Of a stretch of 64,000 nt of DNA, positions 13,373-62,053 are shown piece after piece (position 1 is the stretch's first letter; each line of letters opens with the position of its first letter). Under the pieces are notes generated by a model, which was not told the DNA's origin, searched no databases, and saw only the letters and a program-made list of their open reading frames with translations. This DNA comes from Psychrobacter ciconiae. GTDB lineage: Bacteria; Pseudomonadota; Gammaproteobacteria; Pseudomonadales; Moraxellaceae. A program made the position numbers and the translations under genes. The stretch lies in assembly GCF_904846055.1 (NCBI RefSeq), contig NZ_CAJGYV010000001.1, positions 2,170,001 to 2,234,000 on the forward strand. Reading direction: 5' to 3'.

Positions 13373-16003
13373 TTAAGCTGAATTGGATTTTTTTGGTGAG
13401 GCTTTGCCTTTTTTCTTTTTCTGCTTTTTTTTACCCTTTTCCTCCACCTCTTCTTCCGCGCTGTCACTGTCATCCCAAAGCTCAAGGCGCTGCAAAATTT
13501 TGCCAAATAAGGTGTTTTTTTGGTAGCGACCTTTTTTGTTTGGCGTATCAATCGGGATATTGGTCATGAGGCGCAGGGCTTCACTTAAAGTATTGACACC
13601 AAAAATTTGAAATTGCCCCGTTTTCACGGCATTTATAATGTCATCGCGCAGCATGAGCTGGTTGACGTTTGCCATAGGAATAATCACGCCTTGTTCACCG
13701 GTCAAGCCTTGCTCCACACAAGCGTCGAAAAATCCGGCAATTTTGGCATTAATACCGCCGACGGCTTGAACTTCGCCAAGCTGATTCATGGAGCCTGTGA
13801 TGGCAAAGGCTTGATTGATAGGAACGTCGGCAAGCGCCGACAATAGCGCGCAAGCTTCGCTCACGGTGGCGCTGTCGCCGTCGATGTGGGCGTAGCTTTG
13901 CTCAAAGGCTAAAGAGGCGCTAAAGTTTAAGGCGTGATGCTGACTGAATAACGCACGAAGGTAGCTTGTCATAATGAGCATGCCTTTGGCGTGAAGGCTG
14001 CCTCCTAAATCTACGTCGCGCTCGATGTCCAAAATATCGCCTGAGCCGGTGTTTGGCTGAATGACCGCCGTCAATCGCGCCGGCATACCAAACTCGCTAT
14101 CGGCGTAGCTGACGACAGTTAAAGCGTTGACTTGACCGACGGCAAGACCTTTGGTGTTAATGAGCTGCTGACCGCCTTTGAGCTCCTCCCAGTACAAATC
14201 GCGTAAGTAGCCTGAGCGCTCATCCATATCTAAAATGGCGCGCTCAACGTGCTGGGCGCTGACGATGGCGTCATTTTGCTTTTGGGCATGGCGACCTGAT
14301 TCATGAAGCAGTTTAATCAGGCGGTCGCTGTGCAAGCTCAAGCGGTTTTGGTCTTCTGCCTGCAAGCTTAAATGCTCAAGGAGCGCCGCTTGCGCGGTAT
14401 TGTCAAAGGGCAACAGGTTAGCGGCGTTAATAATATCCGCCATTTTGGCAACAAGCGCCAGTTCATGCTCAGCCGTTCTTGCTACGTCATCATGAAAGTC
14501 AGCGCGGACTTTAAATACCGCATCAAATTCTGGCTCAAGCTCAAGCAATTCATAATAAATGTCCGCCTCGCCAAGCAAAATGACTTTGACGTCCAAGTCA
14601 ATTGCGCTTGGGGCAAGTGACAAGCTACCGGTTAAGGTCAGCATTTGCTCAAGGCTTGACATCTTAATCTTGCCCGATTGTAGCGCGCGTTTCAGACCTT
14701 GCCACGCATAGGGATGCTCAAGTAACGAGTTGGCTTCAAGGAGCAAATAGCCGCCGTTGGCGCGGTGCAATGCGCCGGCGCGAATCATACTGACGTCAGT
14801 GGTCACCGTGCCAAGCTGGGTGATTTGCTCGACATGACCGAGCAAATTAAAATGCGTTGGTAGGTCTTCAAAAATGATTGGCGCGCCGCTGCCTGCAACG
14901 TGACTTGCCATCACATTGACGCTATAACGGCTTGGAGTTTTGGCAAAAACGCCCGCGACAAACTCTTCATCGTCCGCATTAACGATACGCTCGACGTGAT
15001 TGACCATATCATCCATCATGGCTTGCAAAAATTTGCTGACTGCAGGCAGTGCGGCAAATTGCTTTTGCAGTTTTTGAAATAACGGCGTGAGCGTTCGCTT
15101 AGCAATATCGCGGTGCTAGGCTTCGATGGCATCGTTTGCCGCATCCTCAAGCGCTTCAAGCTCAATGGTCAGCTGATTAAGCCGTTTTTGCATGTGGTTT
15201 TTTTGAGCAAACTGCGCATTTGGCAGTTCTGTTAAAACATCTAAAGCATCTTGGTTGATTTGCTCAATCGCTAGGTCGTCGGTCGCAGGGTCAATGGCTG
15301 ATTTGTCATCTTTATCGTCGACTTTGTCATCGGCGGCGCCCTCAAGCTGACTTGGGTGAACAAACATGGCTTTGTTATCAAAAGCGCGAAAGGTCAAGGT
15401 CAAATCAAACTGCTTGCCCTCAGCGCTTAGCTCTTCGTAAGCCATACTTTCTTTTTGATGGGTGTCATTTTTGATGGCTTCAATTTTGCTTTGATATTGC
15501 TCGCTACGAAAGCGCTGGCTTAAGCGCTTGTTGGCGTTTTGCCAAAGCCGGTCAACCTCGGTTTGTAAGGTGAGCGCTTGACCTGCCGGCAAGCAAAGGG
15601 CAATCGGCTCGCGCGGGTCGGTGAAATTATGAACGTAGGCCCAATCATCAGGGGTTGGCTCATGAATGACATTTTTACGCAAAAGCCTTGTGATAATCGT
15701 GCGCTTTCCTAAGCCGTTTTCGCCGGCAGCAAACACATGATAGCCATTAGCTTTGATATCAAACGCCGTTTGCAGTGCTTTAATGGCGCGTTTTTGCCCA
15801 AATCCCACATCAAGCGGTGGCGCTTTTTTGGTGGTTTTGGGCAGTTTTTTGACCTCGCTATAGCGTTTGAGTTTGTCCACTGCAATTCGGCAGCGCTCAA
15901 AGACATTGTCATTAACCGTATGGTCAGTACTTTCTGCTTGCGGTAAGGTCACTTTGGTCGAGGTTTTGGCATCACAGGATTTTACAGAAGTGGTGGTAGT
16001 CAT
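13373..16003 (-). pseudogene. Lon-like ATP-dependent protease (LonB/YcbZ type) interrupted by in-frame TAG
   Basis: Reading from the ATG at 16003, one frame runs to the stop at 13373 (877 codons) with a single TAG at 15116-15118 and no frameshift. The part before the TAG (295 residues) holds the Walker A motif GENGLGKRT at about residues 93-101 and a coiled-coil with an Asp/Lys-rich insertion. The part after it holds the Walker B-like GGYLLLEA, the sensor region and the Lon protease catalytic Ser (GDSATV) and Lys (NAKIAG). Translation continues smoothly across the TAG (EA-stop-HRDIAKRTL), as expected of one ancestral Gln or similar codon. The ATPase is split, so neither piece (15116-16003, or 13373-15028 from a TTG) should work alone. 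The C-terminus has a Lys-rich tail. Pseudogene, suppressed codon and sequencing error all remain possible. Confidence 0.85.
15116..15118 (-). other. In-frame amber codon in the Lon-like gene
   Basis: The plus-strand bases CTA read TAG on the coding strand. The frame upstream (GCC ATC GAA GCC) and downstream (CAC CGC GAT ATT GCT AAG) is the same. CAG to TAG is a one-base transition. Confidence 0.9.
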
Positions 16004-33048: not shown

Positions 33049-33107
33049 GAATGACTTTTTTATAGCTTCGTTCATGGTTTCTTTGATTTTACTTTTAGGA
33101 CATTTCT

Positions 33108-34160
33108 TTGACTGCGTTTATTGCCCCAACGGTTGCTGCCATTGCTAACCCTGAGCTTGCTGCCAAACTTCAACAAAAAATTGATCATAAAACCAAACCA
33201 CAAGGGTCACTTGGTAGGATTGAAGCGCTTGCTTTGCAGCTTGGGATGATTCAAAACACCACCGCGCCAAGTATCATCAATCCTGAGATTTACGTGTTTG
33301 CTGCTGACCATGGGTTAACCAAGCATGGCACGTCAGCATTTCCAAGTGCCGTTACCGCGCAAATGGTGCAAAACTTCTTAAATGGCGGCGCGGCGATTAA
33401 CGTTCTTGCGCGGCAGCATCATATTGGCTTAAAGGTCGTTGACGCCGGCGTTAATGCAACCTTTGCGCCGCATACAGATTTTCTTGATCGTAAAGTTCGG
33501 ATGGGCAGCCGTGACGCCCTGACCGAGCCTGCAATGACAGCGGAGGAATGCCAAACCGCGCTCAATCATGGCGTGATGATTGCCGAAAATATGGCGGGTA
33601 ATTTGCTTATCGTTGGCGAGATGGGCATTGGTAATACCTCGGCGGCAAGTTTGCTGCTCGCTAAATTGGGAAACTTACCGATAGCCACTTGTATCGGTCG
33701 CGGAACGGGGCTTGATGATGAGGGCTTAGCAAAAAAACAAGCCATTTTAAGTCAAGTTCTAGCCCGTCATGACAGTGCCAAATCGCCGTTTGACATCTTA
33801 GCCGCGCTTGGCGGTCTTGAAATTGCCATGATGGCAGGGGCACTGATAAAAGCCGCAAGCCTTCGCAAAATCTTACTTATTGATGGTTTTATTGCAAGTA
33901 GCGCGCTGCTAGTTGCTGAAAATCTTGCCCCAAATACGGCGCAATTTGCCGTCTTTGCTCATAAATCAGCCGAAGCCGGTCATATTGAAATGCTAAAATT
34001 GCTTGATGCCAAACCACTTTTGGACATGGAGCTGCGGTTAGGTGAGGGCAGTGGCGCGGCGCTTGCTTATCCACTATTGGTATCGGCTTGCGCGATGATA
34101 AATGAGATGGCAAGCTTTAGCGAGGCGGGCATCAGCACCAATTCGGCGTCGGCGGATTGA
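33108..34160 (+). CDS. cobT: Nicotinate-nucleotide--dimethylbenzimidazole phosphoribosyltransferase
   Basis: CobT activates the lower ligand base of cobalamin by making alpha-ribazole phosphate from nicotinate mononucleotide. The 350-residue protein has the family features KPQGSLGRIE near the N-terminus, FAADHG at about 64, GEMGIGNTSAA at about 170 and the C-terminal GEGSGAA near residue 313, which carries the catalytic Glu. No ATG fits the N-terminus; the TTG at 33108 has AGGA seven bases upstream and is the likely start. Its stop overlaps the cobS start by one base. Only cobT, cobS and cobC are here, which points to late assembly or salvage. Confidence 0.93.
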   Translation: MTAFIAPTVAAIANPELAAKLQQKIDHKTKPQGSLGRIEALALQLGMIQNTTAPSIINPEIYVFAADHGLTKHGTSAFPSAVTAQMVQNFLNGGAAINVLARQHHIGLKVVDAGVNATFAPHTDFLDRKVRMGSRDALTEPAMTAEECQTALNHGVMIAENMAGNLLIVGEMGIGNTSAASLLLAKLGNLPIATCIGRGTGLDDEGLAKKQAILSQVLARHDSAKSPFDILAALGGLEIAMMAGALIKAASLRKILLIDGFIASSALLVAENLAPNTAQFAVFAHKSAEAGHIEMLKLLDAKPLLDMELRLGEGSGAALAYPLLVSACAMINEMASFSEAGISTNSASAD

Positions 34161-48659: not shown

Positions 48660-50981
48660 ATGCGCAAAATTCCTGTTTATCCGCATCCGGCGGCCGGTTG
48701 GTCAGCCCTTGTCGCCTCAAGCCGAAAGCTGATGGATTATCAGTCCTTTTTGCGCGGCAGTGTCAGCGTACTGCATAGCAATCAGCCTCACGGCGGCTTT
48801 GATTGCCCCGGTTGTGCTTGGCCCGACCACAAAACCCACAAAACGCTAGACGTTTGCGAAACTGGCATTAAAGTTTTGGCAAGCGAAACCACCACAAGAG
48901 CTGCCGATGCCAAGTTTTTTTATCAAAATAAGGTCAGCCAATTGCAGCGCTGGTCAGGCTATGAGCTTGAGCATGCAGGGCGCTTGTCCGAGCCGCTGTG
49001 TTACGATGAGGAAGAAGACCGTTATCTGCCTATCTCTTGGGAAGATGCCTTTATTAAAGTGGCTGACGAATTAAAAAAACTAGCAAGCCCTGATGATGCG
49101 CTGTTTTACACCTCAGGGCGGGTGACCAATGAGCCGGCATTTTTGTATCAGCTGATGGTTCGCTGTTTTGGGACAAATAATTTGCCGGATTGCTCAAATA
49201 TGTGCCACGAGCCGACCTCAGTGATGCTTGCCCGTCAGCTTGGCGTTGGTAAAGCAACTGTGATACTGGAGGACTTTGAGCGCGCTAAACTCATCTTAAT
49301 GTTCGGTCAAAATCCTGCCACCAATCATCCAAGAATGCTTGAAATGCTGGCTCATGCTCATAAAGAGGGTTGTAAGATTATTGCGATCAATCCCATGCGT
49401 GAGCAAGGTCTAAAGGCGTTTCGCAATCCACAAAAACCCACCCACATGGCGGCCGGCATGAGTGACGACATGGTGGATAACGTGATTCAAATCCGCGTGG
49501 GCGGCGACGTGGCGCTGTTAACCGGCTTGGCAAAGTGGCTGGTTGATAACGATAAAATAAATCGCGACTTTATTGACACCGAAACGTCCGGATTCGACGC
49601 GCTTAACGATTGGCTTAGCGCCCAATCTTGGGAAGATATCGAGCGCGGTTCAGGACTTACCAAAGCCGATATCATCGCGGTAGCTAAGCTTGTCGCGGAC
49701 AGTCCTGCCACCATTTGCACTTGGGGCATGGGAATCACGCAGCACGTCCAAGGCGATGACAACGTGGCAATGATTACCAATCTTTTACTGCTTTTGGGAA
49801 TGATTGGCATTGAGGGTGCAGGAGCTGCTCCGATTCGTGGTCACTCAAATGTTCAAGGCGACCGCACCATGGGCATTCACGAACGTCCAAAACCTAAGCT
49901 TTTGGCAAGCCTTGAGCGCGTGTTCAAACTGCCCATGCCAAAGGAGGATGGCTTGGATGTTATCCAAGGTGCCAAAGCTTTAATTGACGGCAAAATCCAC
50001 GCCTTTATCAGCTTGGGCGGTAACTATTCGGTGGCAGCGCCCGACAGTAAAGCTATTCAGCACGCCTTAAGCAAAGCGCAACTGAGCGTTTTTGTTGGCA
50101 CGAAACTGAATGAAACGATGCTTTATCCGGCAAAAACCAGCCTGATTTTGCCATGTCTCAGTCGAACTGAGCGCTATGTGACGGAATATGGTGAGCAATT
50201 TGCCACCATTGAAGACTCTATTTGCCAAATTGTGGCGACCAAAGGTCATTTAAAACCGCTAAGCGCGCAGTTAAAGTCTGAAGCACAAATTATTGCCGGA
50301 ATTGCGCTTGCCCTGTTTGACGACGCTAAGATTGATGATGCTAAAAAGTCAAGCATTGCAAGCATCGATTGGCAAAAAATGAGCACTGATTTTGATTTTA
50401 CCCGCAATTATATTGCCCAAGCCATTGAAGGCTTTGAAAACTTTAATGCCAAAATCCGTGAGCATAAGCGCGGCTTTCATTTGTACCATCCGGCGCGCCA
50501 CCGCTCATGGCAAACCCAAAGCGGTAAAGCGCAATTTGAACTCCCAACCCATTCGGTCACTTTGGTTGCTGACCGTGCGGCGAAAATTGAGCAAGACGCA
50601 AATCACGACTCAGTTTGGCAATTGACCAGCGTCCGTAGTCATGACCAATTTAACACCATGATTTTTGGTTTTGAAGACCGCTACCGGCAGACGCAGCGGC
50701 GCGATGTGCTGTTCATGCACCCTGATGAGATGGCGCGGGCAGGATTACACGAGGGCGCACGCGTTATGGTCACCCGAAAGGACAGTCAAGGCAACGCGCG
50801 AACGCTTGGACCTTTGATATTGACCAAAATGGACATCGCCGCAGGGTCGGTGGCGACGTATTACCCAGAGTGTAACGATTTAATCGACCTTGACAGTCAT
50901 GCGCCTGAATCGCGAACGCCAGCTTATAAGTCAATGACGGTCAGCATCTCGCGCTATGATGAACAAGGCGTCACTGCCTAA
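48660..50981 (+). CDS. FdhF/YdeP-family molybdopterin oxidoreductase
   Basis: This 773-residue enzyme belongs to the molybdopterin oxidoreductases of the YdeP type. Cys at 49, 52 and 66 (DCPGCAWPD then VCETG) form the reduced N-terminal cluster motif of this group. Molybdopterin-guanine-dinucleotide binding regions follow, with FGQNPATNHPRM at about 215 and GHSNVQGDRTMG at about 396. The C-terminal dinucleotide domain includes VRSHDQFNTMIFG. YdeP of E. coli is associated with acid resistance, and the reaction is not settled. There is no Tat signal, so it is cytoplasmic. FdhD, which sulfurates the cofactor of formate-dehydrogenase-like enzymes, follows and overlaps. Confidence 0.9.
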   Translation: MRKIPVYPHPAAGWSALVASSRKLMDYQSFLRGSVSVLHSNQPHGGFDCPGCAWPDHKTHKTLDVCETGIKVLASETTTRAADAKFFYQNKVSQLQRWSGYELEHAGRLSEPLCYDEEEDRYLPISWEDAFIKVADELKKLASPDDALFYTSGRVTNEPAFLYQLMVRCFGTNNLPDCSNMCHEPTSVMLARQLGVGKATVILEDFERAKLILMFGQNPATNHPRMLEMLAHAHKEGCKIIAINPMREQGLKAFRNPQKPTHMAAGMSDDMVDNVIQIRVGGDVALLTGLAKWLVDNDKINRDFIDTETSGFDALNDWLSAQSWEDIERGSGLTKADIIAVAKLVADSPATICTWGMGITQHVQGDDNVAMITNLLLLLGMIGIEGAGAAPIRGHSNVQGDRTMGIHERPKPKLLASLERVFKLPMPKEDGLDVIQGAKALIDGKIHAFISLGGNYSVAAPDSKAIQHALSKAQLSVFVGTKLNETMLYPAKTSLILPCLSRTERYVTEYGEQFATIEDSICQIVATKGHLKPLSAQLKSEAQIIAGIALALFDDAKIDDAKKSSIASIDWQKMSTDFDFTRNYIAQAIEGFENFNAKIREHKRGFHLYHPARHRSWQTQSGKAQFELPTHSVTLVADRAAKIEQDANHDSVWQLTSVRSHDQFNTMIFGFEDRYRQTQRRDVLFMHPDEMARAGLHEGARVMVTRKDSQGNARTLGPLILTKMDIAAGSVATYYPECNDLIDLDSHAPESRTPAYKSMTVSISRYDEQGVTA

Positions 50982-51897
50982 TATGAAAGATAATCAAGAA
51001 TTTAAAAGTAACGACCAAGCGGCGGATGCTGCCCCGCTAAGTCGTGAGCACCTCACCCAAAAGCATAGTTGTGACGATAATCAACAAATAGAAAAAATCG
51101 ACAACACCGAAAGCTTGGTCGTTGAAGCTGCCATTGCGATTGTGATTAACGGTATTCATTACGCCGTTTTGATGGCAAGTCCCAATCAGCTTGATAAGCT
51201 TGCGCTTGGGTTTTTATTTAGTGAAGGTTTGATTTTACAAAAATCGGACTTGATAGATTGGGAAATTACGCCGATTGTTGATTTGACTGAACTTGCCGAG
51301 AAGATAAGCGCGTCAGCTGAATTTGATGAAAATAGCGATTTGGCACATTTAAGCGATTATGACATTTATTTGGTTGAGCTGACCTTAAATCAGCGCTGCC
51401 ATCAACGTATCCAAGCCCAAAGGCGGCTATTATCAGGGCGCACGGGCTGCGGCATGTGCGGAATGACCGGAATTTACCAAGCGCTGCCAAAGTTAAAGCC
51501 AATACCAAACACGACACCAAAGCCAAGCCTTGAAACGTTATTAACGGTCCGCTCAGCGATTAATGATGCCCAATTTACCCACCAGTTAACCGGCGCTGTT
51601 CACGCAGCAGCGACTTGTTATCAAGGTCAGCTATTTTTATTTGAAGACGTCGGTCGCCATAATGCCTTAGATAAGCTGATTGGTTGGCAACTAAAAACGG
51701 GCGCGGCGCTTGATTTTGTGGTGATGACGTCACGGCTGTCGATTGAATTGGTTCAAAAAGCCATCCGCGCCGATATTCCGTGGCTCATCGGCATGTCAGC
51801 GCCAACCAGTACCGCCGTTTTGGTGGCAAAGCGTTACGACTTGGGGCTTGGCGGATTTTTACGCGGCAATCGGGTGACTTTTTATTCAAATTCGTAA
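50956..51897 (+). CDS. fdhD: Formate dehydrogenase accessory sulfurtransferase FdhD
   Basis: FdhD transfers sulfur from IscS to the molybdenum cofactor of formate-dehydrogenase-like enzymes. The motif SGRTGCGMCG at about residues 158-167 supplies the paired Cys, and the later DVGRHNALDKLIG is diagnostic. The protein has 313 residues; the first 50 are polar and Asn/Gln/Asp-rich, unlike the family core. The start at 50956 overlaps the YdeP-like stop by 26 bases; the alternative ATG at 50983 sits just after that stop. Neither has a strong ribosome site, so coupling is likely. Confidence 0.92.
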   Translation: MMNKASLPNMKDNQEFKSNDQAADAAPLSREHLTQKHSCDDNQQIEKIDNTESLVVEAAIAIVINGIHYAVLMASPNQLDKLALGFLFSEGLILQKSDLIDWEITPIVDLTELAEKISASAEFDENSDLAHLSDYDIYLVELTLNQRCHQRIQAQRRLLSGRTGCGMCGMTGIYQALPKLKPIPNTTPKPSLETLLTVRSAINDAQFTHQLTGAVHAAATCYQGQLFLFEDVGRHNALDKLIGWQLKTGAALDFVVMTSRLSIELVQKAIRADIPWLIGMSAPTSTAVLVAKRYDLGLGGFLRGNRVTFYSNS

Positions 51898-52129
51898 CTT
51901 CTAAAAACTTGTTTTAAATAATAAATGCTTCTCATTTAACCTCACAATTTTTAACTAACTTTACCAAACTGTCTATCAACAGTAGGGCAATCTCACGCAA
52001 GCTCAACGCAATTGGCGAAATTAAAGTTTATAAAGTCGATATGATGAAAAAGAGTGTTGATAACCGTGTTAATAACAACAAATAAACTCTTCGATAACCA
52101 TAAATTTTGCCAGCCTGTGAGATGCCAGC

Positions 52130-52825
52130 ATGCCAAATTTGACCTTGATGATAAATGGTCAGGAACATCATTTCGATGACCTCGACCCAAGAACCAGTCT
52201 GCTTGACGTTTGCCGTCAGCATCTTGACTTAACCGGTGCTAAAAAAGGCTGTGACCACGGTCAATGCGGCGCTTGCACCATGATAGTGAACGGTAAGCGC
52301 ATCAACAGCTGCTTGACCCTTGCCATCATGCACGGCGGCGACGAGATTACCACCATTGAAGGTATCGGCGCGCCGGATTCGCTTAGCGAACTGCAACAAG
52401 CTTTTATTGACCATGATGCCTTTCAGTGTGGCTATTGCACACCGGGGCAGATTTGCTCAGCGACCGCAATGATAAGTGAAATTGAAAAGCACTTTCCAAG
52501 TCACGTCACCTCAAATTTAAAAAACCCGCAAATTACCCTTGAGGAAATCGGCGAGCGCATGAGTGGCAACCTTTGTCGCTGTTCGGCGTATCCCAACATT
52601 ATCAACGCCATTTATCAGGTATTAGCCAGTAACGGTTTGGTACAAAATGCCGATAAGTCAGCCGACTCTGCTAATTTAAAAGCTGCCAATTCAAACCCCG
52701 TCACTTCGCAAACAATAAGCCAACCACAAATTTGGTCACCGCTTGCAAGCAATGCCAACCCCAAGCAAGATTCACAAAGCCAAGTCGCCCAACAAAGCCA
52801 CAATAAGCTAGGAGCTGAATTATGA
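52130..52825 (+). CDS. PaoA-like [2Fe-2S] subunit of aldehyde/xanthine dehydrogenase family
   Basis: This 231-residue iron-sulfur subunit has Cys at 41, 46, 49 and 61 (GCDHGQCGAC then NSCLTL) that bind the plant-type cluster. A second set, QCGYCTPG at about 100 and NLCRCSAYPN at about 148, binds the other cluster. Unlike E. coli PaoA there is no Tat signal: the chain starts directly with the beta-grasp domain, so it is predicted to be cytoplasmic. Residues after about 170 form a Gln/Ser/Asn-rich tail not seen in the family. Its stop overlaps the next ATG by four bases (ATGA). Confidence 0.92.
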   Translation: MPNLTLMINGQEHHFDDLDPRTSLLDVCRQHLDLTGAKKGCDHGQCGACTMIVNGKRINSCLTLAIMHGGDEITTIEGIGAPDSLSELQQAFIDHDAFQCGYCTPGQICSATAMISEIEKHFPSHVTSNLKNPQITLEEIGERMSGNLCRCSAYPNIINAIYQVLASNGLVQNADKSADSANLKAANSNPVTSQTISQPQIWSPLASNANPKQDSQSQVAQQSHNKLGAEL

Positions 52826-53859
52826 AACCTTTTGTGTATCAGCGCCCTAACAGCGTAAATGAGGCAATTAAAGAGGGCGCAGCGCAAGATGCCACGTTTA
52901 TTGCAGGCGGCACCAATTTGCTAGATTTGATGAAGCATGAGATTGAAACGCCGCTTAAACTTATTGATATCAACCATTTAGAACTTAGCCAAATTGAAAA
53001 ACTGGACTCAGGCGAGTTAAAAATCGGCGCGCTGGTCAGTAACAGCGACCTTGCCGCTCACCCTGAAGTCATTGCCAATTATCCGGTGTTGTCGCGGGCG
53101 CTTTTAGCAGGCGCGTCGGGACAACTGCGCAATAAAGCCACGACGGCGGGCAACTTGCTACAACGAACGCGCTGTTATTACTTTTATCAGCCGGACAGCC
53201 CTTGTAACAAACGCAACCCCAACTCTGGCTGTTCTGCGATTGACGGCGAGAGCCGAAAGCTTGCGATTTTAGGCGTGAGTGATGATTGCATTGCTCAGCA
53301 TCCTTCAGATATGGCGGTGGCGATGCGCGCCCTTGATGCCAAAGTTATCACTCAACTTGCCGATGGCAGCTCGCGAACGCTTAGCCTCGATGAGCTGTAC
53401 CGGTTGCCAAAAGATACCCCAAATATCGAAACCAACTTACAATCTGGCGAACTGATTTCGCACCTCGTTTTGCCGCCGCCAGTAAATGGCATTCAAACTT
53501 ATGACAAGGTTCGCGACCGCGCCTCTTACGCGTTTGCGCTGGTATCGCTTGCCGCGATTATCGATGTTGATAATGAGGGTAATTTGACCACCGTTCAGTT
53601 AGCGTTCGGCGGTATTGGTGTGATGCCGTGGCGAAATGCTGCCGTTGAAGCGCTGCTGACAAGCTCAAAAGGTGAGCGCGAAGCGGTGGTTCAAGCCGCA
53701 GAGTTGCTGTTAAATGATGCCAAAACTACCGAACAAAATGCCTTTAAAGTGCCACTGACCAAGCGCTTACTTATTCAAGCGATTGAGCGTGCTATTAGCG
53801 CCAGTAAAAACGCCGCGCTTAATACCACCGCCCATCCTGCCAATTTAAACTTGCCTTAG
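52822..53859 (+). CDS. PaoB-like FAD and [4Fe-4S] subunit
   Basis: This 345-residue FAD-binding subunit belongs to the xanthine dehydrogenase family. The FAD loop AGGTNLLDLMK is at about 32-42 and the second contact, ATTAGNLLQRTRC, at about 104-116. Cys residues in TRCYYFY, SPCNKRNP and SGCSAI at about 116-136 match the extra [4Fe-4S] cluster peculiar to PaoB, which places the enzyme in the PaoABC group rather than classic xanthine dehydrogenase. It is coupled to the upstream PaoA-like gene by a four-base overlap and followed nine bases on by the large subunit. Confidence 0.92.
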   Translation: MKPFVYQRPNSVNEAIKEGAAQDATFIAGGTNLLDLMKHEIETPLKLIDINHLELSQIEKLDSGELKIGALVSNSDLAAHPEVIANYPVLSRALLAGASGQLRNKATTAGNLLQRTRCYYFYQPDSPCNKRNPNSGCSAIDGESRKLAILGVSDDCIAQHPSDMAVAMRALDAKVITQLADGSSRTLSLDELYRLPKDTPNIETNLQSGELISHLVLPPPVNGIQTYDKVRDRASYAFALVSLAAIIDVDNEGNLTTVQLAFGGIGVMPWRNAAVEALLTSSKGEREAVVQAAELLLNDAKTTEQNAFKVPLTKRLLIQAIERAISASKNAALNTTAHPANLNLP

Positions 53860-53868
53860 GAGCACGTT

Positions 53869-56376
53869 ATGCCGTCTATTTCTGATGTAAAATCGCTTCT
53901 TGATGACAAACTTGCGCCGCACAAAACGCTGACCATGGATGACGCTATGCCAACTTTGCTTGGCAAAACGCCAAATCCTGAAGTTGGCAAGCCGGTGAAC
54001 CGCTTGCACGGCGATTTAAAAGTAAGCGGTCATGCCAAATACGCCGCTGAATATCGCTTTGATGACGAGCTGTTCGGCGTTTTGGTTTGTGCAACCATTG
54101 GCAAAGGCAAAATTTCGCAAATTCACACCGACGCTGCCAAAAAACTGTCGAACGTTGTGGATATTGTCATTGATTTTGAGCAATTTATCCGCCATCCGCA
54201 GCAAGGCGGCAAAAAAAAGTCACCCTCGCAAGGCGCGGATACTATCGTTTATCATGGACAGCCGATAGCTTTGGCAGTCGCCAAAACGTTTGAGGCGGCA
54301 ACTGAAGCGGCAAAGCTGGTTCAAATTGAATACCAAAATGAAAGTAATGACGGCGCGTTTGATTTTGCCAAAGAAAAAATGGGCGCTCACAGCATGCCCA
54401 AAGTGCCAACCCAAATCCAAGGCGACCCTGAAAAAACGCTAAAAGATGCGCAGGTCAGCGTTGATAAAACGTACACCACGCCAAGCCAAAGCAACTCGCC
54501 CATAGAGCCACACGCTACCATTGCCAAGTGGGATGGTGATAGCGTGACCCTTTATACCGCAAATCAAATGCTGGCGTCCTGCAAACAGCAAGTGGCTGAT
54601 GCTTTAGATTTAAAACCCGACAATGTGCGTTTGGTGTCGCGGTTTGTTGGCGGCGGCTTTGGTAGTAAGCTTGGGATTGCCCCTGAACTCATTGCCGCTG
54701 CCGTTGCTGCAAAACAATTAAATGCACCGGTTCGCGTGGTTATGTCGCGGCCGCAAGTCATGGAGGCGACCGTTCGCCGATCCAACACCGAGCAGCGCAT
54801 TGGTCTTGGGGCGGACAAAGACGGCCGCATCCACACCGTCATTCACGACACCATCATCACCAACTTGCCCGACCAAACGTTTTATGAGCCAACTGCTGAG
54901 TCCACACCGTTTTTATATCAAGGTGAAAACCGTAAGATCAGCTATAAAATGGTTCGGATGAACCAAGTGCTGGCAGGGTCAATGCGCGCACCCGGCGAGG
55001 CAGTCGGGCAAATCGCTTTGGAATGCGCAATGGATGAGCTTGCTGAAAAGCTAAACCTTGACCCCATTGAATTGCGGATTTTAAACGAACCCAAAAAAGA
55101 CCCAAGCAAAGACATTCCCTACTCAAGCCGGCATTTGGTTGAGTGTATGAAAGTTGGCGCGGAAAAGTTCGGTTGGAGTCAGCGCCAAGCAACCCCTTGC
55201 AGCACCCGCGATGGCGATTGGCTCGTTGGCATGGGAATGGCGGTGGCTTGCCGTGTCAATAATTTAGAAAAATCACAAGCCCGAGCTAGCCTGAAATTAA
55301 GCGACCAAAAGCCACTTGGGGTGGAAGCGGTGATTGAAACTGACATGACCGACATTGGTACAGGCTCTTATACCGTTTTGGCGCAAATTGCTGCTGAAAT
55401 GCTCGGCTTACCGCTTGACCATGTCGTCATCAACTTGGGCGATACCAATTTGCCACCGGCATCTGGCTCAGGCGGAAGCGTTGGGGCAGCAAGCGCCGGA
55501 AGCAGCGTTTATTTGGCGTGTCAAAAGCTTCGCGAGCTGATTGCCGAGCGCGCCAATGTGGCAAGTGATGATTTAAATATAGATAACGGCAAAGTCTTTG
55601 AATCGGACGACACTGAGAAAAATAACCTTGGCATGATTGACCAGTTCAAACAAGCGGTTAAAGAAAAAGCCGAAATCGTTTCTGCTGAAATTATCGACAA
55701 AGCTACCAAAACCGCAAAAGAGGCGCTAAACCAACTTTCTGATAATGCCAATGATAAAAAAGACAGTGATAAAAATGACGCAGACAAAAATTCAAGCCCG
55801 CAAGATAAACCCATCGACTTATCTTCATCTAAAAACTTAAGCGAAATCTTAACGCATTTTGATGACAATAAAATCAGCGCCCTTGGCACGATTAAACCAG
55901 GGAAAACCCAAAAAGAGTACCGCCAAGCTTGTTATGGGGCGAACTTTGTTGAGGTCGGCGTTCATCGCTTCACCGGTGAGATTCGCGTTCGCCGGATGAC
56001 GGGCGTATTTACCGCCGGCAAGATTTTAAACCATAAGACCGCAACGTCGCAATGCTATGGCGGTATGGTCTTTGGTATTGGCTCAGCGCTTATGGAAGAA
56101 ATCGTCCACGACAAGCGCACAGGTCGCCTTTGTAATCACGATTTAGCGGAATATCATATTCCGGTCAACGCCGACGTCCCGCAGCTTGACGTGACCTTAT
56201 TAGATGAAGCCGATGAATATGCCAACCCCATTCATATTAAAGGTATTGGCGAAACGGCAATTTCAGGGGCGGCCGCAGCGATTGCCAATGCAGTTTATAA
56301 TGCAACTGGCGTTCGCGTTTATGAGTTCCCGATTAAGATTGAGCATTTACTTGACAAGCTTCCTGACGGCTTATGA
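53869..56376 (+). CDS. PaoC-like molybdenum-cytosine-dinucleotide subunit
   Basis: The large catalytic subunit has 835 residues. The Gly-rich cofactor motif GGGFGSKLG is at about 262, GSMRAPGEAVGQ at about 369 and the catalytic Glu in KGIGETAISGA near 793. E. coli PaoC has about 732 residues; much of the excess is a highly charged Lys/Asp/Asn/Ser insertion at about residues 585-655, between the cluster-binding strand and the LSEIL helix. Paired with the PaoB-like [4Fe-4S] subunit it is probably an aldehyde dehydrogenase; the substrate is unknown. The four-base ATGA overlap couples it to xdhC. AGGAGC precedes the ATG. Confidence 0.92.
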   Translation: MPSISDVKSLLDDKLAPHKTLTMDDAMPTLLGKTPNPEVGKPVNRLHGDLKVSGHAKYAAEYRFDDELFGVLVCATIGKGKISQIHTDAAKKLSNVVDIVIDFEQFIRHPQQGGKKKSPSQGADTIVYHGQPIALAVAKTFEAATEAAKLVQIEYQNESNDGAFDFAKEKMGAHSMPKVPTQIQGDPEKTLKDAQVSVDKTYTTPSQSNSPIEPHATIAKWDGDSVTLYTANQMLASCKQQVADALDLKPDNVRLVSRFVGGGFGSKLGIAPELIAAAVAAKQLNAPVRVVMSRPQVMEATVRRSNTEQRIGLGADKDGRIHTVIHDTIITNLPDQTFYEPTAESTPFLYQGENRKISYKMVRMNQVLAGSMRAPGEAVGQIALECAMDELAEKLNLDPIELRILNEPKKDPSKDIPYSSRHLVECMKVGAEKFGWSQRQATPCSTRDGDWLVGMGMAVACRVNNLEKSQARASLKLSDQKPLGVEAVIETDMTDIGTGSYTVLAQIAAEMLGLPLDHVVINLGDTNLPPASGSGGSVGAASAGSSVYLACQKLRELIAERANVASDDLNIDNGKVFESDDTEKNNLGMIDQFKQAVKEKAEIVSAEIIDKATKTAKEALNQLSDNANDKKDSDKNDADKNSSPQDKPIDLSSSKNLSEILTHFDDNKISALGTIKPGKTQKEYRQACYGANFVEVGVHRFTGEIRVRRMTGVFTAGKILNHKTATSQCYGGMVFGIGSALMEEIVHDKRTGRLCNHDLAEYHIPVNADVPQLDVTLLDEADEYANPIHIKGIGETAISGAAAAIANAVYNATGVRVYEFPIKIEHLLDKLPDGL

Positions 56377-57497
56377 ACCAAGTTAGCGATATTTTACGCC
56401 TTGCCAAAACGGCTCAAACTGAGGGCATCGATGCGGTTTTGGCAACGGTGGTAAAAACTGAAGGCTCGGCATACCGGCAGGTCGGCGCAATGATGCTCAT
56501 TTGTAAAGATGGTCGTTCGGTCGGCATGATTAGTGGCGGCTGTCTTGAGCCGCATATCATCAAAAAAGCCTTTTGGCTCACCAAAGACGGCGCAACCGTT
56601 CAAGTTTACCAAACCGGCGATAGTGATGACGACGAGGTGGACGACGCGCTAAACTTTGGTCTTGGCTGCAACGGTCGCGTTTATGTTTTATTTGAGCGTC
56701 TAAATCAAGCCGCGCCGCTTTTGAGCTTAATTGAGAATATCCGGCAGTCACAATCACCTAAAACGATTGCCACCGTGATTGATTCAAATCATCCAAAGCT
56801 TGCTGTTGGAACGCGGTTTTGCTTGGATGATTTATTACAAAACCAATTCACGGATATTCAAGGTAAAACGCAAGTTATTGACCCTAAGCTACTATCAAAG
56901 TTGACTGAATTTAATGCGCAAAACCTAGATAAAAAATATTTTTCACATCTTGAAGTCGATAAAAGCACGTGGCTGATTCAAAACCTCAAACCGCAAATTC
57001 GCTTGCTGATTTGCGGCACAGGAAATGACGTCATGCCGCTGGTCAGCCTTGCTAAAATGCAAGATTGGCACGTCACTGTCATTGATAGCCGAGCGCATTA
57101 TGCAACAAGGTTACGATTTACCACGGCTGACGACGTACGTTGCGTGGCGCTCGATGATGAAAAAACGTTGCTCACTTTGAGCCAAAATGCCTTAATAGCT
57201 ATCATGTCGCACAGCTTAACCCAAGATAGGGCAAGGCTTAATATATTGCTTAATCATCCAGATCATTATCACTATTTAGGTCAACTTGGCCCCAAATATC
57301 GAACCGAGCGCTTGCTTAATGAGATTAAAACCGCAAGTCCAAACCCCGAAACTTTTAATCAAGGCATCAAAAAGCTGCATTTTCCTATCGGCTTTAAGCT
57401 TGGCGGTGATGGTCCTGAAGCTTTAGCGCTTGGTATTATGGCACAAATGAGCGCGGTTATTTATGATTGTGATTTGATGAAAATAGAAGAAGGTTAA
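56373..57497 (+). CDS. XdhC/PaoD-family maturation factor
   Basis: This 374-residue protein has the XdhC N-terminal domain (SGGCLEPHI at about 52-60, the GLGCNG motif at about 96) and the C-terminal Rossmann XdhC_C domain with LLICGTGNDVMPL at about 210. XdhC and PaoD proteins bind the sulfurated molybdenum cofactor and insert it into the PaoC- or XdhB-type subunit, with MocA supplying the cytosine dinucleotide. It overlaps the large-subunit stop by four bases, and a MocA-like gene starts six bases after it. Confidence 0.9.
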   Translation: MNQVSDILRLAKTAQTEGIDAVLATVVKTEGSAYRQVGAMMLICKDGRSVGMISGGCLEPHIIKKAFWLTKDGATVQVYQTGDSDDDEVDDALNFGLGCNGRVYVLFERLNQAAPLLSLIENIRQSQSPKTIATVIDSNHPKLAVGTRFCLDDLLQNQFTDIQGKTQVIDPKLLSKLTEFNAQNLDKKYFSHLEVDKSTWLIQNLKPQIRLLICGTGNDVMPLVSLAKMQDWHVTVIDSRAHYATRLRFTTADDVRCVALDDEKTLLTLSQNALIAIMSHSLTQDRARLNILLNHPDHYHYLGQLGPKYRTERLLNEIKTASPNPETFNQGIKKLHFPIGFKLGGDGPEALALGIMAQMSAVIYDCDLMKIEEG

Positions 57498-57503
57498 AAA
57501 ATA

Positions 57504-58196
57504 ATGACGGTTGAACTGCAAGGGGCAGTGCCAAATTCACATCATGCGGTCATTATTTTAGCGGCAGGACTAAGCACGCGCCTTGGAACGCCAAAGCAGC
57601 TGCTTTGCAAACATGGTCAACCATTAATTGAAGTGATGACCAAAGAGGCGCTAAAAACCAACCCTGCTGCCGTCATTATCGTCAGTCAAAACCAATCAAA
57701 AAATTTAGCTGACGTCTTAACCTCCCTTAGCAAATTATCAAATCGCAATTACATTGTCATTAATCGGGCGCCCGAAAAAGGCATGGCGCAAAGCTTATCT
57801 TTAGGGGTTGAGGCGCTTAAGACTTTAGCAAGCAGCGCTGATATTAAGCGCGTTTTAATTTTAGGAATTGACCAAATTCATTTAGACAGTGCCCATTTGC
57901 AAGAGCTATTAACCGTTAAAAAAGTTGTTGGAGCAAGCAGTTATCCAAAAGATGAAGCAGCGCTTATTAATGCTGATGACCCGCGCGCTAACATTGTTGG
58001 GCTTCCTATTGCTATTGATTATGCTAAGCTTACCCCGTGGCAAGATAAGCTTTCGGGGGATAAAGGGCTTCGGGCGCTCATTCGCAGTTTGGATGCTTGC
58101 CAAATTGCAACCGTAATCAACCCCAAGCTTTGCTATGATATTGACACCAAAGCTCAGCTTGAAGCTGCCCAAAGCAAAGGCTGGCTAGACCAATAG
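57504..58196 (+). CDS. mocA: MocA-like molybdenum cofactor cytidylyltransferase
   Basis: This 230-residue nucleotidyltransferase has the start motif ILAAGLSTRLGTPKQLL at about 17-33, the CTP-binding pattern of the MocA/MobA family. The RLGTPKQLL form with Pro-Lys is nearer MocA (cytidylyl) than MobA (guanylyl). It forms molybdenum cytosine dinucleotide, the cofactor of PaoC-type subunits, and lies directly after the xdhC gene, as expected. A separate mobA for the YdeP-type enzyme occurs at 61355. Confidence 0.87.
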   Translation: MTVELQGAVPNSHHAVIILAAGLSTRLGTPKQLLCKHGQPLIEVMTKEALKTNPAAVIIVSQNQSKNLADVLTSLSKLSNRNYIVINRAPEKGMAQSLSLGVEALKTLASSADIKRVLILGIDQIHLDSAHLQELLTVKKVVGASSYPKDEAALINADDPRANIVGLPIAIDYAKLTPWQDKLSGDKGLRALIRSLDACQIATVINPKLCYDIDTKAQLEAAQSKGWLDQ

Positions 58197-58269
58197 CCAC
58201 GGTTAACCCAAATTACTATTAAAACATTAACTTTAAAATAAAAATGACCAAAACAAAAAAGAGCCAAAT

Positions 58270-59580
58270 ATGATTACGATGGAAGCGCTGGTTGCCGCGA
58301 TTAGCGCGCGGATTGATGATTATAACCAAACAGATTTGCCACTGAACAAGCGCCAAGTGATCACCATTTCGCTGCTTGAGAGCGTCAATCATATTTTGGC
58401 GGTCGATATTAGCGCGCCGTTTGATGTGCCACGGCAGGACTTATCGGCGATGGATGGCTACGCGATTGCTAAAGGTACAATGATTGCCAAAGACGCCAAA
58501 ATCAGTATTGTTGGCGAGTCGCAAGCCGGTCGTGCGTTTACCGGCAATTTGAAGTCAGGTGAGGGCGTTCGCATTTTTACCGGTGCGGTCGTTCCAAACG
58601 ATTGCGACAGCATTTTAATCCAAGAAAATACTGATTTTGCCACCATTCGCCATCACATCGACAAATCAAAACCTTATGATATTACCGTCACCGATTTGCC
58701 AAGTTCGGATGATCATATCCGCCGCCAAGGCGAGGAAATCACCAAAGGCGCGGTCGTTCTTAGCGTCCAAAAACGCTTAAATCCTACCGATATCAGCTTG
58801 CTTGCCAATTTAGGCGTTGCTGAAGTTCAAGTTTTTAAACCCTTAACCGTTGGGCTGATTGCCACCGGTGACGAGCTTGTTGCGCTTGGCGGCACGCTTG
58901 ACAGCCTAGCGCAGATTTATAACGGCAACTCGCCGACCATTCAGACCTTGCTTGCTGAGTTGCCTATCAACATAAAAGACTACGGCATCATTCCTGATGA
59001 TAAAGATGCTACCGTTAACGCTATAAAATTAGCAACCACCGAGTGCGATGTTTTGGTATCAAGCGCGGGCGTTTCCGTCGGTGATTATGACTTTTTAACG
59101 CCGGTGATTGAGGAAGTCGGTAAAATCAACCATTATAAAGTCGCGATGAAACCTGGGAAGCCGTTTGTTTTTGGGGAGTTAACGCGCTCAAAATCGGCAG
59201 AAAATAGCTCAGCACCGATTTTATATTTTGGACTTCCAGGCAATCCCTTATCGGCACTGGTAGGAACCTTGCAATTTGTCATTCCGGCGCTTTGGCAACT
59301 GTCGGGCACTGCTGATGGCGATATTCCAAAGCCATTAATGCTAAAAGCCAAGCTGACTTGCGATATCAAAAAAGCGGTCGGTCGCAAGGACTTTCAGCGC
59401 GGCATTTTGACCCAAGATGGCTTGGGCAATTATGAGGTTAAAGGCAGCAGTCATCAGCAGTCGCACCGAATCAAGCAGCTAAGCGATGCCAATTGCTTTA
59501 TCGTTCTTGATAAAGAGTCAGGAAGCCTAAAGGCAGGAAGTGACGTGCTAGTTCAGCCTTTTCCGTGGTGTTTTGCTTAA
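58270..59580 (+). CDS. moeA: Molybdopterin molybdotransferase
   Basis: MoeA inserts molybdenum into adenylated molybdopterin. The 436-residue protein has the characteristic DVPRQDLSAMDGYA at about 54-67, IFTGAVVP at about 98, LIATGDELV at about 197 and the GLPGNPLSALVG motif near 322, with KPGKPFVFGE just before it. Domain order matches E. coli MoeA (about 411 residues). It is separated from mocA by 73 bases and lies ahead of moaA, inside the molybdenum locus. Confidence 0.95.
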   Translation: MITMEALVAAISARIDDYNQTDLPLNKRQVITISLLESVNHILAVDISAPFDVPRQDLSAMDGYAIAKGTMIAKDAKISIVGESQAGRAFTGNLKSGEGVRIFTGAVVPNDCDSILIQENTDFATIRHHIDKSKPYDITVTDLPSSDDHIRRQGEEITKGAVVLSVQKRLNPTDISLLANLGVAEVQVFKPLTVGLIATGDELVALGGTLDSLAQIYNGNSPTIQTLLAELPINIKDYGIIPDDKDATVNAIKLATTECDVLVSSAGVSVGDYDFLTPVIEEVGKINHYKVAMKPGKPFVFGELTRSKSAENSSAPILYFGLPGNPLSALVGTLQFVIPALWQLSGTADGDIPKPLMLKAKLTCDIKKAVGRKDFQRGILTQDGLGNYEVKGSSHQQSHRIKQLSDANCFIVLDKESGSLKAGSDVLVQPFPWCFA

Positions 59581-59644
59581 CAGACCTTATATACAAAAGA
59601 TAGCCCACTATCATTGTCACGACGACCATCAACCAAGGATGTGA

Positions 59645-60745
59645 ATGATGACGTATCAGCGCCCAACTGCCAACACCGCTCAGCAATTTGTGCCGACGCC
59701 TGTTCGCGTGGGCGCTGATGCGCCAAGGTTAAGCGCTGCCGCCTCAATTTTGGAAGCGACCGAAGCAGCCCAAGCGCTCACCGACGGCTTTTCGCGGCAG
59801 CTGACTTATTTGCGGCTGTCCATCACCGATTTTTGCAACTTTCGCTGTGAATATTGCCTCCCCAACGGCTATCAGGGCGTTCGCGCTAAAGACGAGCTGA
59901 CCTTGCCCGAAATCAAACGCTTGGTTAATGGCTTTGCTTTGCTTGGCACCAAAAAAGTGCGAATTACCGGCGGCGAGCCATCCATTCGGCAAGACGTCAC
60001 CCAAATTATCGAAATCGTTCGCCAAACTGCCGGAATCGATACCATCGCGATGACCAGTAACGGCTATAAGCTTGGTAAGCATTTGGCAGGCTGGCAAGCT
60101 GCCGGACTTAATCAGCTAAATATTAGCATTGACAGCTTTGATGCCGATATTTTTCATCAAATGACCGGAATGAATACGTTGCCTGCGCTCATGACTGATA
60201 TGGAAACGCTGCTTGAAACGACTGATATTAAGCTTAAAATCAACAGCATTTTGATGAAAGAAACGGCATTTGATAACCTAATTTATGCTTTAGATTTTGT
60301 CAAATCGCGACCGGTTACCTATCGCTTTATCGAATTTATGCAGACCAGTGACAACCATCAGCTGTTTTTTGCTCAGCATGCCAACGCCGACCGCGTCAAA
60401 AGCTATCTGCTTGAGCGCGGCTGGCGGGCGGAAATCCGAGGTCAAAGCGATGGTCCTGCCGTTGAATTTTCCCATCCGGATTATTTGGGCAGGATTGGTC
60501 TGATTGCCCCTTATGCCGCCCATTTTTGCGACAATTGCAACCGGCTTCGGGTCAGCTGTCACGGTCGCGTTCATTTGTGCTTATTTGACCAAGGCAACTA
60601 CGACATCCGACCTTTCTTGCAGCACGACAACCCAGCGCCTTTAATAAACGCCCTACAAAACCTGATGCCCATCAAACCTGAGCACCACCATTTGCACGAC
60701 AACAACAGCGGAATGATGACCAATTTATCCATCATTGGCGGTTAA
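59645..60745 (+). CDS. moaA: GTP 3',8-cyclase (MoaA)
   Basis: MoaA is a radical SAM enzyme that converts GTP into 3',8-cyclo-GTP, the first step of molybdopterin synthesis. The radical cluster motif FCNFRCEYC lies at about residues 63-71 and the second cluster Cys set (FCDNCNRLRVSC...LCLF) at about 295-315. The protein ends in the conserved Gly-Gly. The N-terminus is about 45 residues longer than in many MoaA proteins and Ala/Thr-rich. An AGGATGTGA site precedes the ATG. MoaC, which completes the step, is further on. Confidence 0.95.
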   Translation: MMTYQRPTANTAQQFVPTPVRVGADAPRLSAAASILEATEAAQALTDGFSRQLTYLRLSITDFCNFRCEYCLPNGYQGVRAKDELTLPEIKRLVNGFALLGTKKVRITGGEPSIRQDVTQIIEIVRQTAGIDTIAMTSNGYKLGKHLAGWQAAGLNQLNISIDSFDADIFHQMTGMNTLPALMTDMETLLETTDIKLKINSILMKETAFDNLIYALDFVKSRPVTYRFIEFMQTSDNHQLFFAQHANADRVKSYLLERGWRAEIRGQSDGPAVEFSHPDYLGRIGLIAPYAAHFCDNCNRLRVSCHGRVHLCLFDQGNYDIRPFLQHDNPAPLINALQNLMPIKPEHHHLHDNNSGMMTNLSIIGG

Positions 60746-60816
60746 AACTAGGCTAAATCAACTAAGCAAAGCTTTATAAGAAAAATTTTATTCGAAAAAC
60801 ATAAAAAGGATAATCA

Positions 60817-61344
60817 ATGACTAAGCCCCAAGCGCCATTTTTACCGCTCAATATTGCCGTACTTTGCGTTTCCGACAGCCGAACTTTGGCTGAGGATACT
60901 TCAGGAAAATACCTTGCCGACAGCTTAACCGAAGCGGGGCACAATCTTGCTGACCGAAAAGTGGTCACCGATGATGTTTACCAAATCCGCGCCGTTATTA
61001 GCGCTTGGATTGCTGACAAAAATATTCATGCCATTATCACCACCGGCGGCACTGGGTTTTATAAGCGCGACAGCGTTCCTGAAGCGGTCAGCGTACTGTT
61101 TGATAAATCGGTCGATGGCTTTGGTGAAATGTTCCGCTTAATTTCTAAAGACGACATCGGCATGTCAACCATCCAGTCAAGAGCAATCGCTGGAATGGCA
61201 AACAATACGGGGGTCTTTTGCCTTCCAGGGTCATCAGGCGCTTGCCGAACCGGTTGGGAAGGTATTTTAAAAGAGCAGCTTGATAATCGCACCCGACCTT
61301 GCAACTTTGTGGCGCACTTTTTGGGTGAAAATCCAAGCCATTAA
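60817..61344 (+). CDS. moaB: Molybdenum cofactor biosynthesis protein B (MoaB/MogA family)
   Basis: This 175-residue member of the MPT adenylyltransferase-like family has the Gly-rich TTGGTGFYKRDSVPEAV at about residues 69-85 and the early VSDSRTLAEDTSG. MoaB-type proteins adenylate molybdopterin or act near that step; MogA does so in E. coli. The length matches MoaB. AAAAGGATAATC precedes the ATG. The mobA start lies ten bases after its stop. Confidence 0.93.
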   Translation: MTKPQAPFLPLNIAVLCVSDSRTLAEDTSGKYLADSLTEAGHNLADRKVVTDDVYQIRAVISAWIADKNIHAIITTGGTGFYKRDSVPEAVSVLFDKSVDGFGEMFRLISKDDIGMSTIQSRAIAGMANNTGVFCLPGSSGACRTGWEGILKEQLDNRTRPCNFVAHFLGENPSH

Positions 61345-61354
61345 AGCAAATAAA

Positions 61355-62053
61355 ATGCTGAAAAATAATAACCTTTTGATGCCTGCTGCCATCGTTATTT
61401 TAGCAGGGGGTCAATCGCGGCGAATGGGGTCAGCAAAGGCGCTGTTAACCTTGCCAAATGGCAAGTCGCTACTTGATTATCATATTGATTCTGCAAAAGC
61501 TTTTAACTGCCCAATTTTGATTGCAGATAATGGTCAAGGTTTTTTCGATAAAGAAAAAAACCGTGATAGCACGAATATAAGGCAAATCAGCGATTACAAA
61601 CCGAAAGACGCTCAAAACCAACATCAGGGCGGAGCATTGGTGGCAATTTTAGGGGCGATGCAAGCGCTCAAAGGGCTGCCTGATGATGGTTGGCTGCTTG
61701 TTATTAGCTGTGATAGTTTGATTTCTGCCAAGATGCTTTGGGAGAAACTAAGCGATGAAGTTGCTTTGGTAAATAAGGCAGATAAGACCAATAAGACAGG
61801 TCAAGCTGATATTATTTGTTTAAATGGTGAGCATAAAATTTTGCCTTTATTGGGCGCTTATTGTTTGGGTTTAGCAGATGAATTAAAGTCATACATTGAT
61901 AATGGTGAGCGCCGAGTCATACCGTTTATTCTGCCGAAAGTTAGCACGATTGACACGCCAAAATCATGGGAGGCATTTACAAATTTTAATTCCCAAACAG
62001 ACTTTAATCGCGCTTGCCAAGCTTTTTTATCATTCAAAGGTTTTGTCATCTAA
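61355..62053 (+). CDS. mobA: Molybdenum cofactor guanylyltransferase
   Basis: MobA attaches GMP to molybdopterin to form the bis-MGD cofactor that the YdeP/FdhF-type enzyme uses. The nucleotide motif ILAGGQSRRMGSAKALL lies near the N-terminus, the most diagnostic feature. The open frame reaches back to a TTG at 61280, inside moaB, but the ATG at 61355 gives a normal start and no strong ribosome site distinguishes it from the ATG at 61379, which is a further possibility. A Lys/Asn/Asp-rich loop at about residues 55-70 is less conserved. The moaC gene follows 23 bases on. Confidence 0.88.
   Translation: MLKNNNLLMPAAIVILAGGQSRRMGSAKALLTLPNGKSLLDYHIDSAKAFNCPILIADNGQGFFDKEKNRDSTNIRQISDYKPKDAQNQHQGGALVAILGAMQALKGLPDDGWLLVISCDSLISAKMLWEKLSDEVALVNKADKTNKTGQADIICLNGEHKILPLLGAYCLGLADELKSYIDNGERRVIPFILPKVSTIDTPKSWEAFTNFNSQTDFNRACQAFLSFKGFVI

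What the first reader, a model, noticed from the sequence alone, without database searches (positions are those of the whole stretch)
15116..15118. One amber codon splits an otherwise intact Lon-like protease
Across 877 codons (16003 to 13373, minus strand) the only defect is a TAG; the frame is the same on both sides and the protein text reads straight through. The ATPase is cut between Walker A (upstream) and Walker B (downstream), so neither fragment should function. A gene this clean suggests a very recent CAG-to-TAG change, a suppressor tRNA, regulated read-through or a base-call error. LonB/YcbZ-type proteases are usually stable core genes.
Basis: partly seen in the sequence, partly recalled or inferred. 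Interest (0 to 1): 0.75.

Follow-up and report, generated by a model that had tools for sequence, protein, structure and literature searches.

The report
Recent stop codon breaks LonC-like protease
One Psychrobacter genome has a single stop codon in the middle of an otherwise unspoilt protease gene; this looks like an ordinary, very recent loss of the gene (or a base-call error), not a new way of reading stop codons.

Summary
In detail: TAG at 15118-15116 (minus strand) is the only in-frame stop in an 877-codon frame (16003-13373) of a Psychrobacter genome. The gene encodes a LonC-like S16 protease. A near-identical full-length protein (P0019) exists: 872 of 872 shared residues identical, one 3-residue indel, leucine at the stop. 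Of 207 aligned sequences 196 reach this column: 194 Leu, 2 Met, no Gln, so the CAG origin is not supported. 98 of 104 other Psychrobacter genomes keep one open frame. Against suppression or recoding: none of 48 tRNA genes reads a stop, RF1 and RF2 have intact frames, TAG ends other genes normally, no second junction of this kind in 464 kb sampled, no unusual RNA structure downstream. Best explanation: a very recent, apparently private nonsense mutation that inactivates the gene. A base error at this one site cannot be excluded without reads, although 40.5 kb of conserved coding in the window shows no other break. Low interest.

The parts
15119..16003 (-). Upstream open part, 295 codons: N-terminal AAA-like segment with Walker-A-like motif and LonC helical domain
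15116..15118 (-). In-frame TAG, codon 296; leucine in 194 of the 196 aligned sequences that reach it
13376..15115 (-). Downstream open part, 580 codons: AAA_32, LonB_AAA-LID and Lon_C protease domain; TAA at 13375-13373
15698..15724 (-). Walker-A-like motif GENGLGKRT (residues 94-102)
   Evidence: seen directly; each column kept in at least 197 of the 198-199 sequences that reach it
15545..15646 (-). LonC_helical (PF20437) match, residues 120-153; the only one in the genome
15233..15250 (-). Imperfect 9-bp tandem repeat; P0019 lacks three residues here
14735..14749 (-). Walker-B-like motif YLLLE (residues 419-423), without the canonical Asp-Glu pair
   Evidence: canonical form recalled
14495..14887 (-). 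AAA_32 (PF13654) match; the only one in the genome
13571..13882 (-). Lon_C (PF05362) match, protease domain
13871..13873 (-). Predicted catalytic serine 711 (GDSA), 190 of 190 that reach it
   Evidence: catalytic role recalled from the S16 family
13742..13744 (-). Predicted catalytic lysine 754 (AKI), 188 of 188 that reach it
   Evidence: catalytic role recalled from the S16 family
13697..13720 (-). CVEQGLTG, fits the LonC-specific insertion CX3GLX(G/E)
   Evidence: sequence; consensus from PMC3391209 passages
15017..15019 (-). First ATG after the stop, 32 codons on; by eye no Shine-Dalgarno-like sequence in front, but none in front of ATG 16003 either

Best explanation
A conserved, single-copy LonC-like (S16, Ser-Lys) protease gene of Psychrobacter was inactivated in this strain by one very recent substitution that turned what is a leucine codon in its relatives into TAG. 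RF1 ends translation at codon 296 and releases a 295-residue piece with the Walker-A-like segment and part of the helical region; the 580 codons with the Walker-B-like segment and the protease dyad are untranslated, or at most weakly re-initiated. Shown: stop, frame, near-identical intact allele, leucine column, RF1 gene, no stop-reading tRNA gene found. Inferred: that the change is real in the cell, that the products are inactive, and that the loss is tolerated because canonical Lon is present.
For: Same frame on both sides and 872 of 872 shared residues identical to P0019. Leu in 194 and Met in 2 of 196 sequences that reach the column; the 67 loci that reach it use six leucine codons. 98 of 104 other genus genomes have one open frame. 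0 of 48 tRNA genes read a stop; RF1 and RF2 frames intact and over cut-off. TAG ends 31 of 143 long coding-like frames in 464 kb, this one possibly among them; of the 11 other TAG-ended window ORFs, 9 have a relative and all 9 end within 11 residues of it. Canonical Lon elsewhere has an 835-codon open frame. Loss of the E. coli relative ycbZ is tolerated.
Against: No read data. Only one near-identical allele (P0019, on a 3549-base contig, source not shown) was found, so the privacy of the stop rests on n = 1. There is no second lesion: nothing but the stop itself shows loss of function. The lineage is thinly sampled: the neighbouring TerD-like protein's best database match is 91%.
Confidence: 0.76

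Rival explanations
1. Base-call or consensus error: the organism has a sense codon there and the gene is intact.
For: No other lesion; the only near-identical allele is intact. Three of 104 other genus genomes (G048, G050, G075) show copies broken between frames in assemblies of 84-86% completeness, so assembly errors probably hit this gene elsewhere in the public record.
Against: The assembly looks good: 99.9% complete, 0% contamination, 2 contigs; 40,523 window bases matched to relatives' ORFs show no other stop or frameshift apart from a start-site artefact at 33066-33108 and one alignment cut by the window edge. A lone substitution is unlike the usual indel errors of long-read assemblies (recalled; the sequencing method is not known here).
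Confidence: 0.17
2. Regulated or suppressed read-through: TAG is decoded at useful frequency (suppressor tRNA, weak RF1 or leaky context), giving full-length protein.
For: The base after the stop is C, recalled as a leaky context; the downstream half is intact.
Against: 0 of 48 tRNA genes read stops; RF1 frame intact; a sense codon in all 196 aligned sequences that reach the column; downstream RNA no more folded than shuffles, z 0.64; only candidate junction without a nearby start in 464 kb; TAG is a normal terminator in the window.
Confidence: 0.03
3. Functional split protease: both halves are made (the second from an internal start) and reassemble, or the second half works as an ATP-independent peptidase.
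For: A TTG and an ATG lie 29 and 32 codons after the stop in the open frame; the two LonC proteases discussed in PMC3391209 lack ATPase activity (passages).
Against: By eye no ribosome-binding-like sequence before the internal ATG, though the native start has none either; the stop interrupts a predicted helix (poor model overall); 98 of 104 other genus genomes keep the gene in one frame.
Confidence: 0.04

Closest known systems
LonC proteases (MtaLonC of Meiothermus taiwanensis, TTC1975 of Thermus thermophilus; PDB 4fwd)
   Same: Best solved relatives by sequence (E 3.2e-86 with P0019); share the CX3GLX(G/E) insertion and the Ser-Lys dyad; P0019's leucine at the stop position aligns with a leucine. 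P0019 and the window match LonC_helical.
   Different: Here the gene is cut by TAG; the Walker-A-like Lys is followed by Arg-Thr; ATPase state unknown.
E. coli YcbZ
   Same: E. coli is among the control genomes with AAA_32; that the hit is YcbZ is recalled. Loss tolerated in E. coli.
   Different: LonC_helical did not ring in the E. coli control, so YcbZ is a relative, not a proven orthologue.
Recent nonsense pseudogenes in bacterial strains
   Same: One stop, otherwise unspoilt frame, intact near-identical allele.
   Different: Nothing beyond the gene affected.

Membership tests
LonC subfamily of S16 proteases | LonC-specific insertion CX3GLX(G/E) after the catalytic lysine helix | tested here: met
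   CVEQGLTG at 13720-13697, 8 codons after Lys754 (consensus from PMC3391209 passages)
LonC subfamily of S16 proteases | LonC helical domain (PF20437) plus Lon_C protease domain | tested here: met
LonC subfamily of S16 proteases | Ser-Lys catalytic dyad | tested here: met
   Ser711 190 of 190, Lys754 188 of 188 sequences that reach them
LonC subfamily of S16 proteases | Lack of canonical AAA+ motifs and of ATPase activity | tested here: inconclusive
   GENGLGKRT and YLLLEA depart from the consensus; activity not testable here
LonC subfamily of S16 proteases | Second LonC-specific insertion in helix alpha5 | not tested
   named in PMC3391209 passages only
Archaeal LonB | Membrane-spanning segments in the AAA+ domain | not tested
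   no transmembrane prediction run; the downstream half matches TIGR00764 far below its cut-off (111.3 vs 516.6 bits)
Recent nonsense pseudogene | Intact near-identical allele with a sense codon at the site | tested here: met
   P0019
Recent nonsense pseudogene | Stop present in the organism's own reads | not testable with these tools
   no reads held
Suppressor tRNA or reassigned TAG | tRNA with an amber-reading anticodon | tested here: not met
   0 of 48; 46 of 196 first-look candidates were not scored
Suppressor tRNA or reassigned TAG | TAG no longer terminates other genes | tested here: not met
   9 of 9 other TAG-ended window ORFs that have a relative end within 11 residues of it;
Programmed read-through | Stop conserved among relatives | tested here: not met
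   194 Leu and 2 Met of 196 that reach the column

The most novel reading that the evidence does not exclude
The stop is a selected, naturally occurring loss of the LonC-like protease in a lineage with a small Psychrobacter genome, parallel to the repeated mutation of E. coli ycbZ under erythromycin and another chemical in laboratory evolution; or both halves are expressed and work as a split LonC.
Probability: 0.07. Interest if true: 0.4.

Novelty: new member of a known kind. Interest (0 to 1): 0.13.

Why it matters
It is a clean example of a very young nonsense lesion in a widely kept but dispensable protease gene, and a caution: an intact-looking frame with one TAG needs a check for an intact near-identical allele before suppression or recoding is invoked. 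The role of LonC/YcbZ-like proteases in gamma-proteobacteria is poorly known (YcbZ is called uncharacterised in PMC7686311); a natural null strain could help, if real.

Tried and rejected
CAG origin: not supported. Suppressor tRNA and RF1 defect: not supported. One tRNA-Leu carries the anticodon 'tag'; that reads CUA codons, not amber. Programmed read-through: not supported. Paralogue as backup: AAA_32 and LonC_helical each match once in the genome; the other two Lon_C matches are canonical Lon and, by its sequence, RadA (names recalled).

A truncated allele in the protein database: a search with the upstream half (295 aa, so candidates of about 162-516 residues) gave 18 proteins, the best-scoring 62% and none over 67% identical, so no truncated copy of this allele was seen; but clusters are shown by one representative, so a fragment could hide inside the P0019 cluster (5 member sequences).

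Scans that failed: the first two coding-stop-coding scans did not recover the known junction at 15118, so their short lists count for nothing (the stop-codon tally and the start positions are used). The third scores longer segments, and its threshold was chosen after seeing those failures; of 641 junctions it keeps 14, of which 13 have a start codon 0-15 codons after the stop and 15118 has its first at 29. One search read minus-strand loci in the wrong orientation and was redone. Promoter- and terminator-like sites around the gene were no more than in shuffles (2 vs 1.9 and 2 vs 2.2). The AlphaFold model of P0019 is poor overall (mean pLDDT 46.4, pTM 0.31); only the local helix 258-312 (block means 64-86 for residues 261-310) is used, and no fold search was run. 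A plasmid search with the region gave no match; E. coli genomes and phages were not searched by similarity. Papers: passages of PMC4079197, PMC7686311, PMC3391209, PMC8546975 and PMC13232886 (YcbZ and RNase E, not used) were read; PMC9569914 and the other listed papers were seen in search listings only.

Full report
Observation. The minus strand reads ATG at 16003, 295 open codons, TAG at 15118-15116, 580 open codons, TAA at 13375-13373. Both halves match a single database protein, P0019 (873 aa), end to end in one frame: upstream 292 identities over 295 with one 3-residue gap, downstream 580 of 580. The finding is confirmed at its coordinates.

What the gene is. Upstream: LonC_helical (PF20437). 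Downstream: AAA_32, LonB_AAA-LID, Lon_C. P0019 has all four above cut-off. The nearest solved structures by sequence are the LonC proteases TTC1975/MtaLonC (PDB 4fwd and kin, E 3.2e-86). CVEQGLTG fits the LonC-specific insertion CX3GLX(G/E) given in PMC3391209 (passages read). Ser711 and Lys754 are invariant among the sequences that reach them (190 of 190, 188 of 188). Walker-A-like GENGLGKRT and Walker-B-like YLLLEA are conserved in the alignment but depart from the canonical motifs; MtaLonC also has altered motifs and no ATPase activity. It is therefore better called LonC-like than LonB or YcbZ: AAA_32 rings in the E. coli control, LonC_helical does not. The stop corresponds to residue 293 of P0019, inside a predicted helix 258-312 (model poor overall, better locally).

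Relatives. The genus is Psychrobacter, by the record titles of the closest loci. Of 105 genomes of the genus searched with the downstream half, 104 have a match at E 0.001 or better. Of the 104 other than this one, 97 have an open frame of at least 798 codons (my count from the table) and G011 has 775 codons with both matched pieces in one frame and no stop: 98 of 104. The other six: G048, G050 and G075 have pieces in different frames, in assemblies of 84-86% completeness; G087 has pieces in two frames in a stretch that contains N; G062 gave no match and G074 only a weak one (E 3.5e-4), not an orthologue. In the family, 113 of 119 genomes match P0019 (one of them, G188, only at 4.6e-4); G151 (one contig, 100% complete) has none, and G172 shows two pieces in separate open frames, so loss seems to occur elsewhere too.

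The site. I aligned 207 sequences to the window protein (69 loci, L005-L073, with L074 left out; and 138 proteins): 194 have Leu, 2 have Met, 11 do not reach the column. Some loci and proteins are the same genomes, so rows are not independent. The 67 loci that reach the column use six leucine codons: the residue is kept while the codon drifts.

Age. Against P0019 the window has no amino-acid substitution in 872 shared residues, one 3-residue difference at a 9-bp imperfect tandem repeat (15250-15233), and the stop. P0019 comes from a 3549-base contig and its source is not shown; it is the only such allele seen. The next alleles are 95% and 94% identical over the downstream half and full-length (P0020, P0021). 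A gene long in decay would be expected to show other lesions; there are none. The change is very recent or an error.

Suppression, recoding, read-through. All 48 tRNA genes found were assigned an anticodon; none reads UAG, UAA or UGA; 46 of 196 first-look candidates were not scored. RF1 and RF2 have open frames over their cut-offs. In 464 kb (window plus 20 stretches of 20 kb, about 19% of the genome) 31 of 143 long coding-like frames end in TAG, this one possibly among them. In the window 12 of 43 ORFs of 200 or more residues end in TAG; of the 11 besides this one, 9 have a relative in the fetched stretches and all 9 end within 11 residues of it. Of 641 in-frame junctions with 40 open codons on each side, 14 had coding signal on both sides; 13 have a start codon 0-15 codons after the stop, 15118 alone not (first at 29) (threshold set after two failed scans). 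RNA downstream of the stop is not unusually folded (z 0.64).

Error or mutation. The assembly is 99.9% complete with 0% contamination in two contigs. ORFs of at least 150 residues from 80-kb stretches of four relatives (92 of 194 had a window match) covered 40,523 bases of the window; besides this gene one alignment was cut by the window edge and one held stops, which lie upstream of the window ORF's own start at 33108. Genes shorter than that and the part from about 48.6 kb on were not covered. Base quality therefore looks good, but one position cannot be judged without reads.

Consequence. The 295-residue product lacks the Walker-B-like segment, the lid and the protease domain. An internal ATG lies 32 codons after the stop, by eye without a Shine-Dalgarno-like sequence, though the native start has none either. 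Canonical Lon has an 835-codon open frame. In E. [quoted passage not shown] this shows the gene can be lost there, and is only an analogy here. PMC8546975 (passages) gives a mean Psychrobacter genome size of 3.12 Mb and a higher share of predicted pseudogenes in the flexible ecotype (P 0.03, but 0.6 after phylogenetic correction); this genome has 2.48 Mb. I do not know its ecotype.

Verdict. An ordinary, very recent nonsense lesion in a LonC-like protease gene (0.76), or a base error (0.17). No support for suppression or programmed read-through.

Noticed in passing
48660-62053 (+): Molybdoenzyme block (molybdopterin oxidoreductase, FdhD, three-subunit Fer2/FAD/MoCoBD hydroxylase, XdhC, MoeA, two MobA-like proteins) without a match in the 80-kb stretches of four relatives around this gene; the rest of those genomes was not searched.
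   Followed up: partly
15233-15250: Imperfect 9-bp tandem repeat where P0019 lacks three residues.
   Followed up: partly
L159, L161 (G048, G075): Copies of the same gene broken between frames in assemblies of 84-85% completeness, probably assembly errors.
   Followed up: partly
G172:C1:1018864-1022413: A genome of another genus in the family has the gene in two pieces with separate open frames (533 and 386 codons), possibly an independent loss.
   Followed up: no
L157 (G011): Copy with a shorter open frame: P0019 residues 171-256 find no match there, no stops.
   Followed up: no
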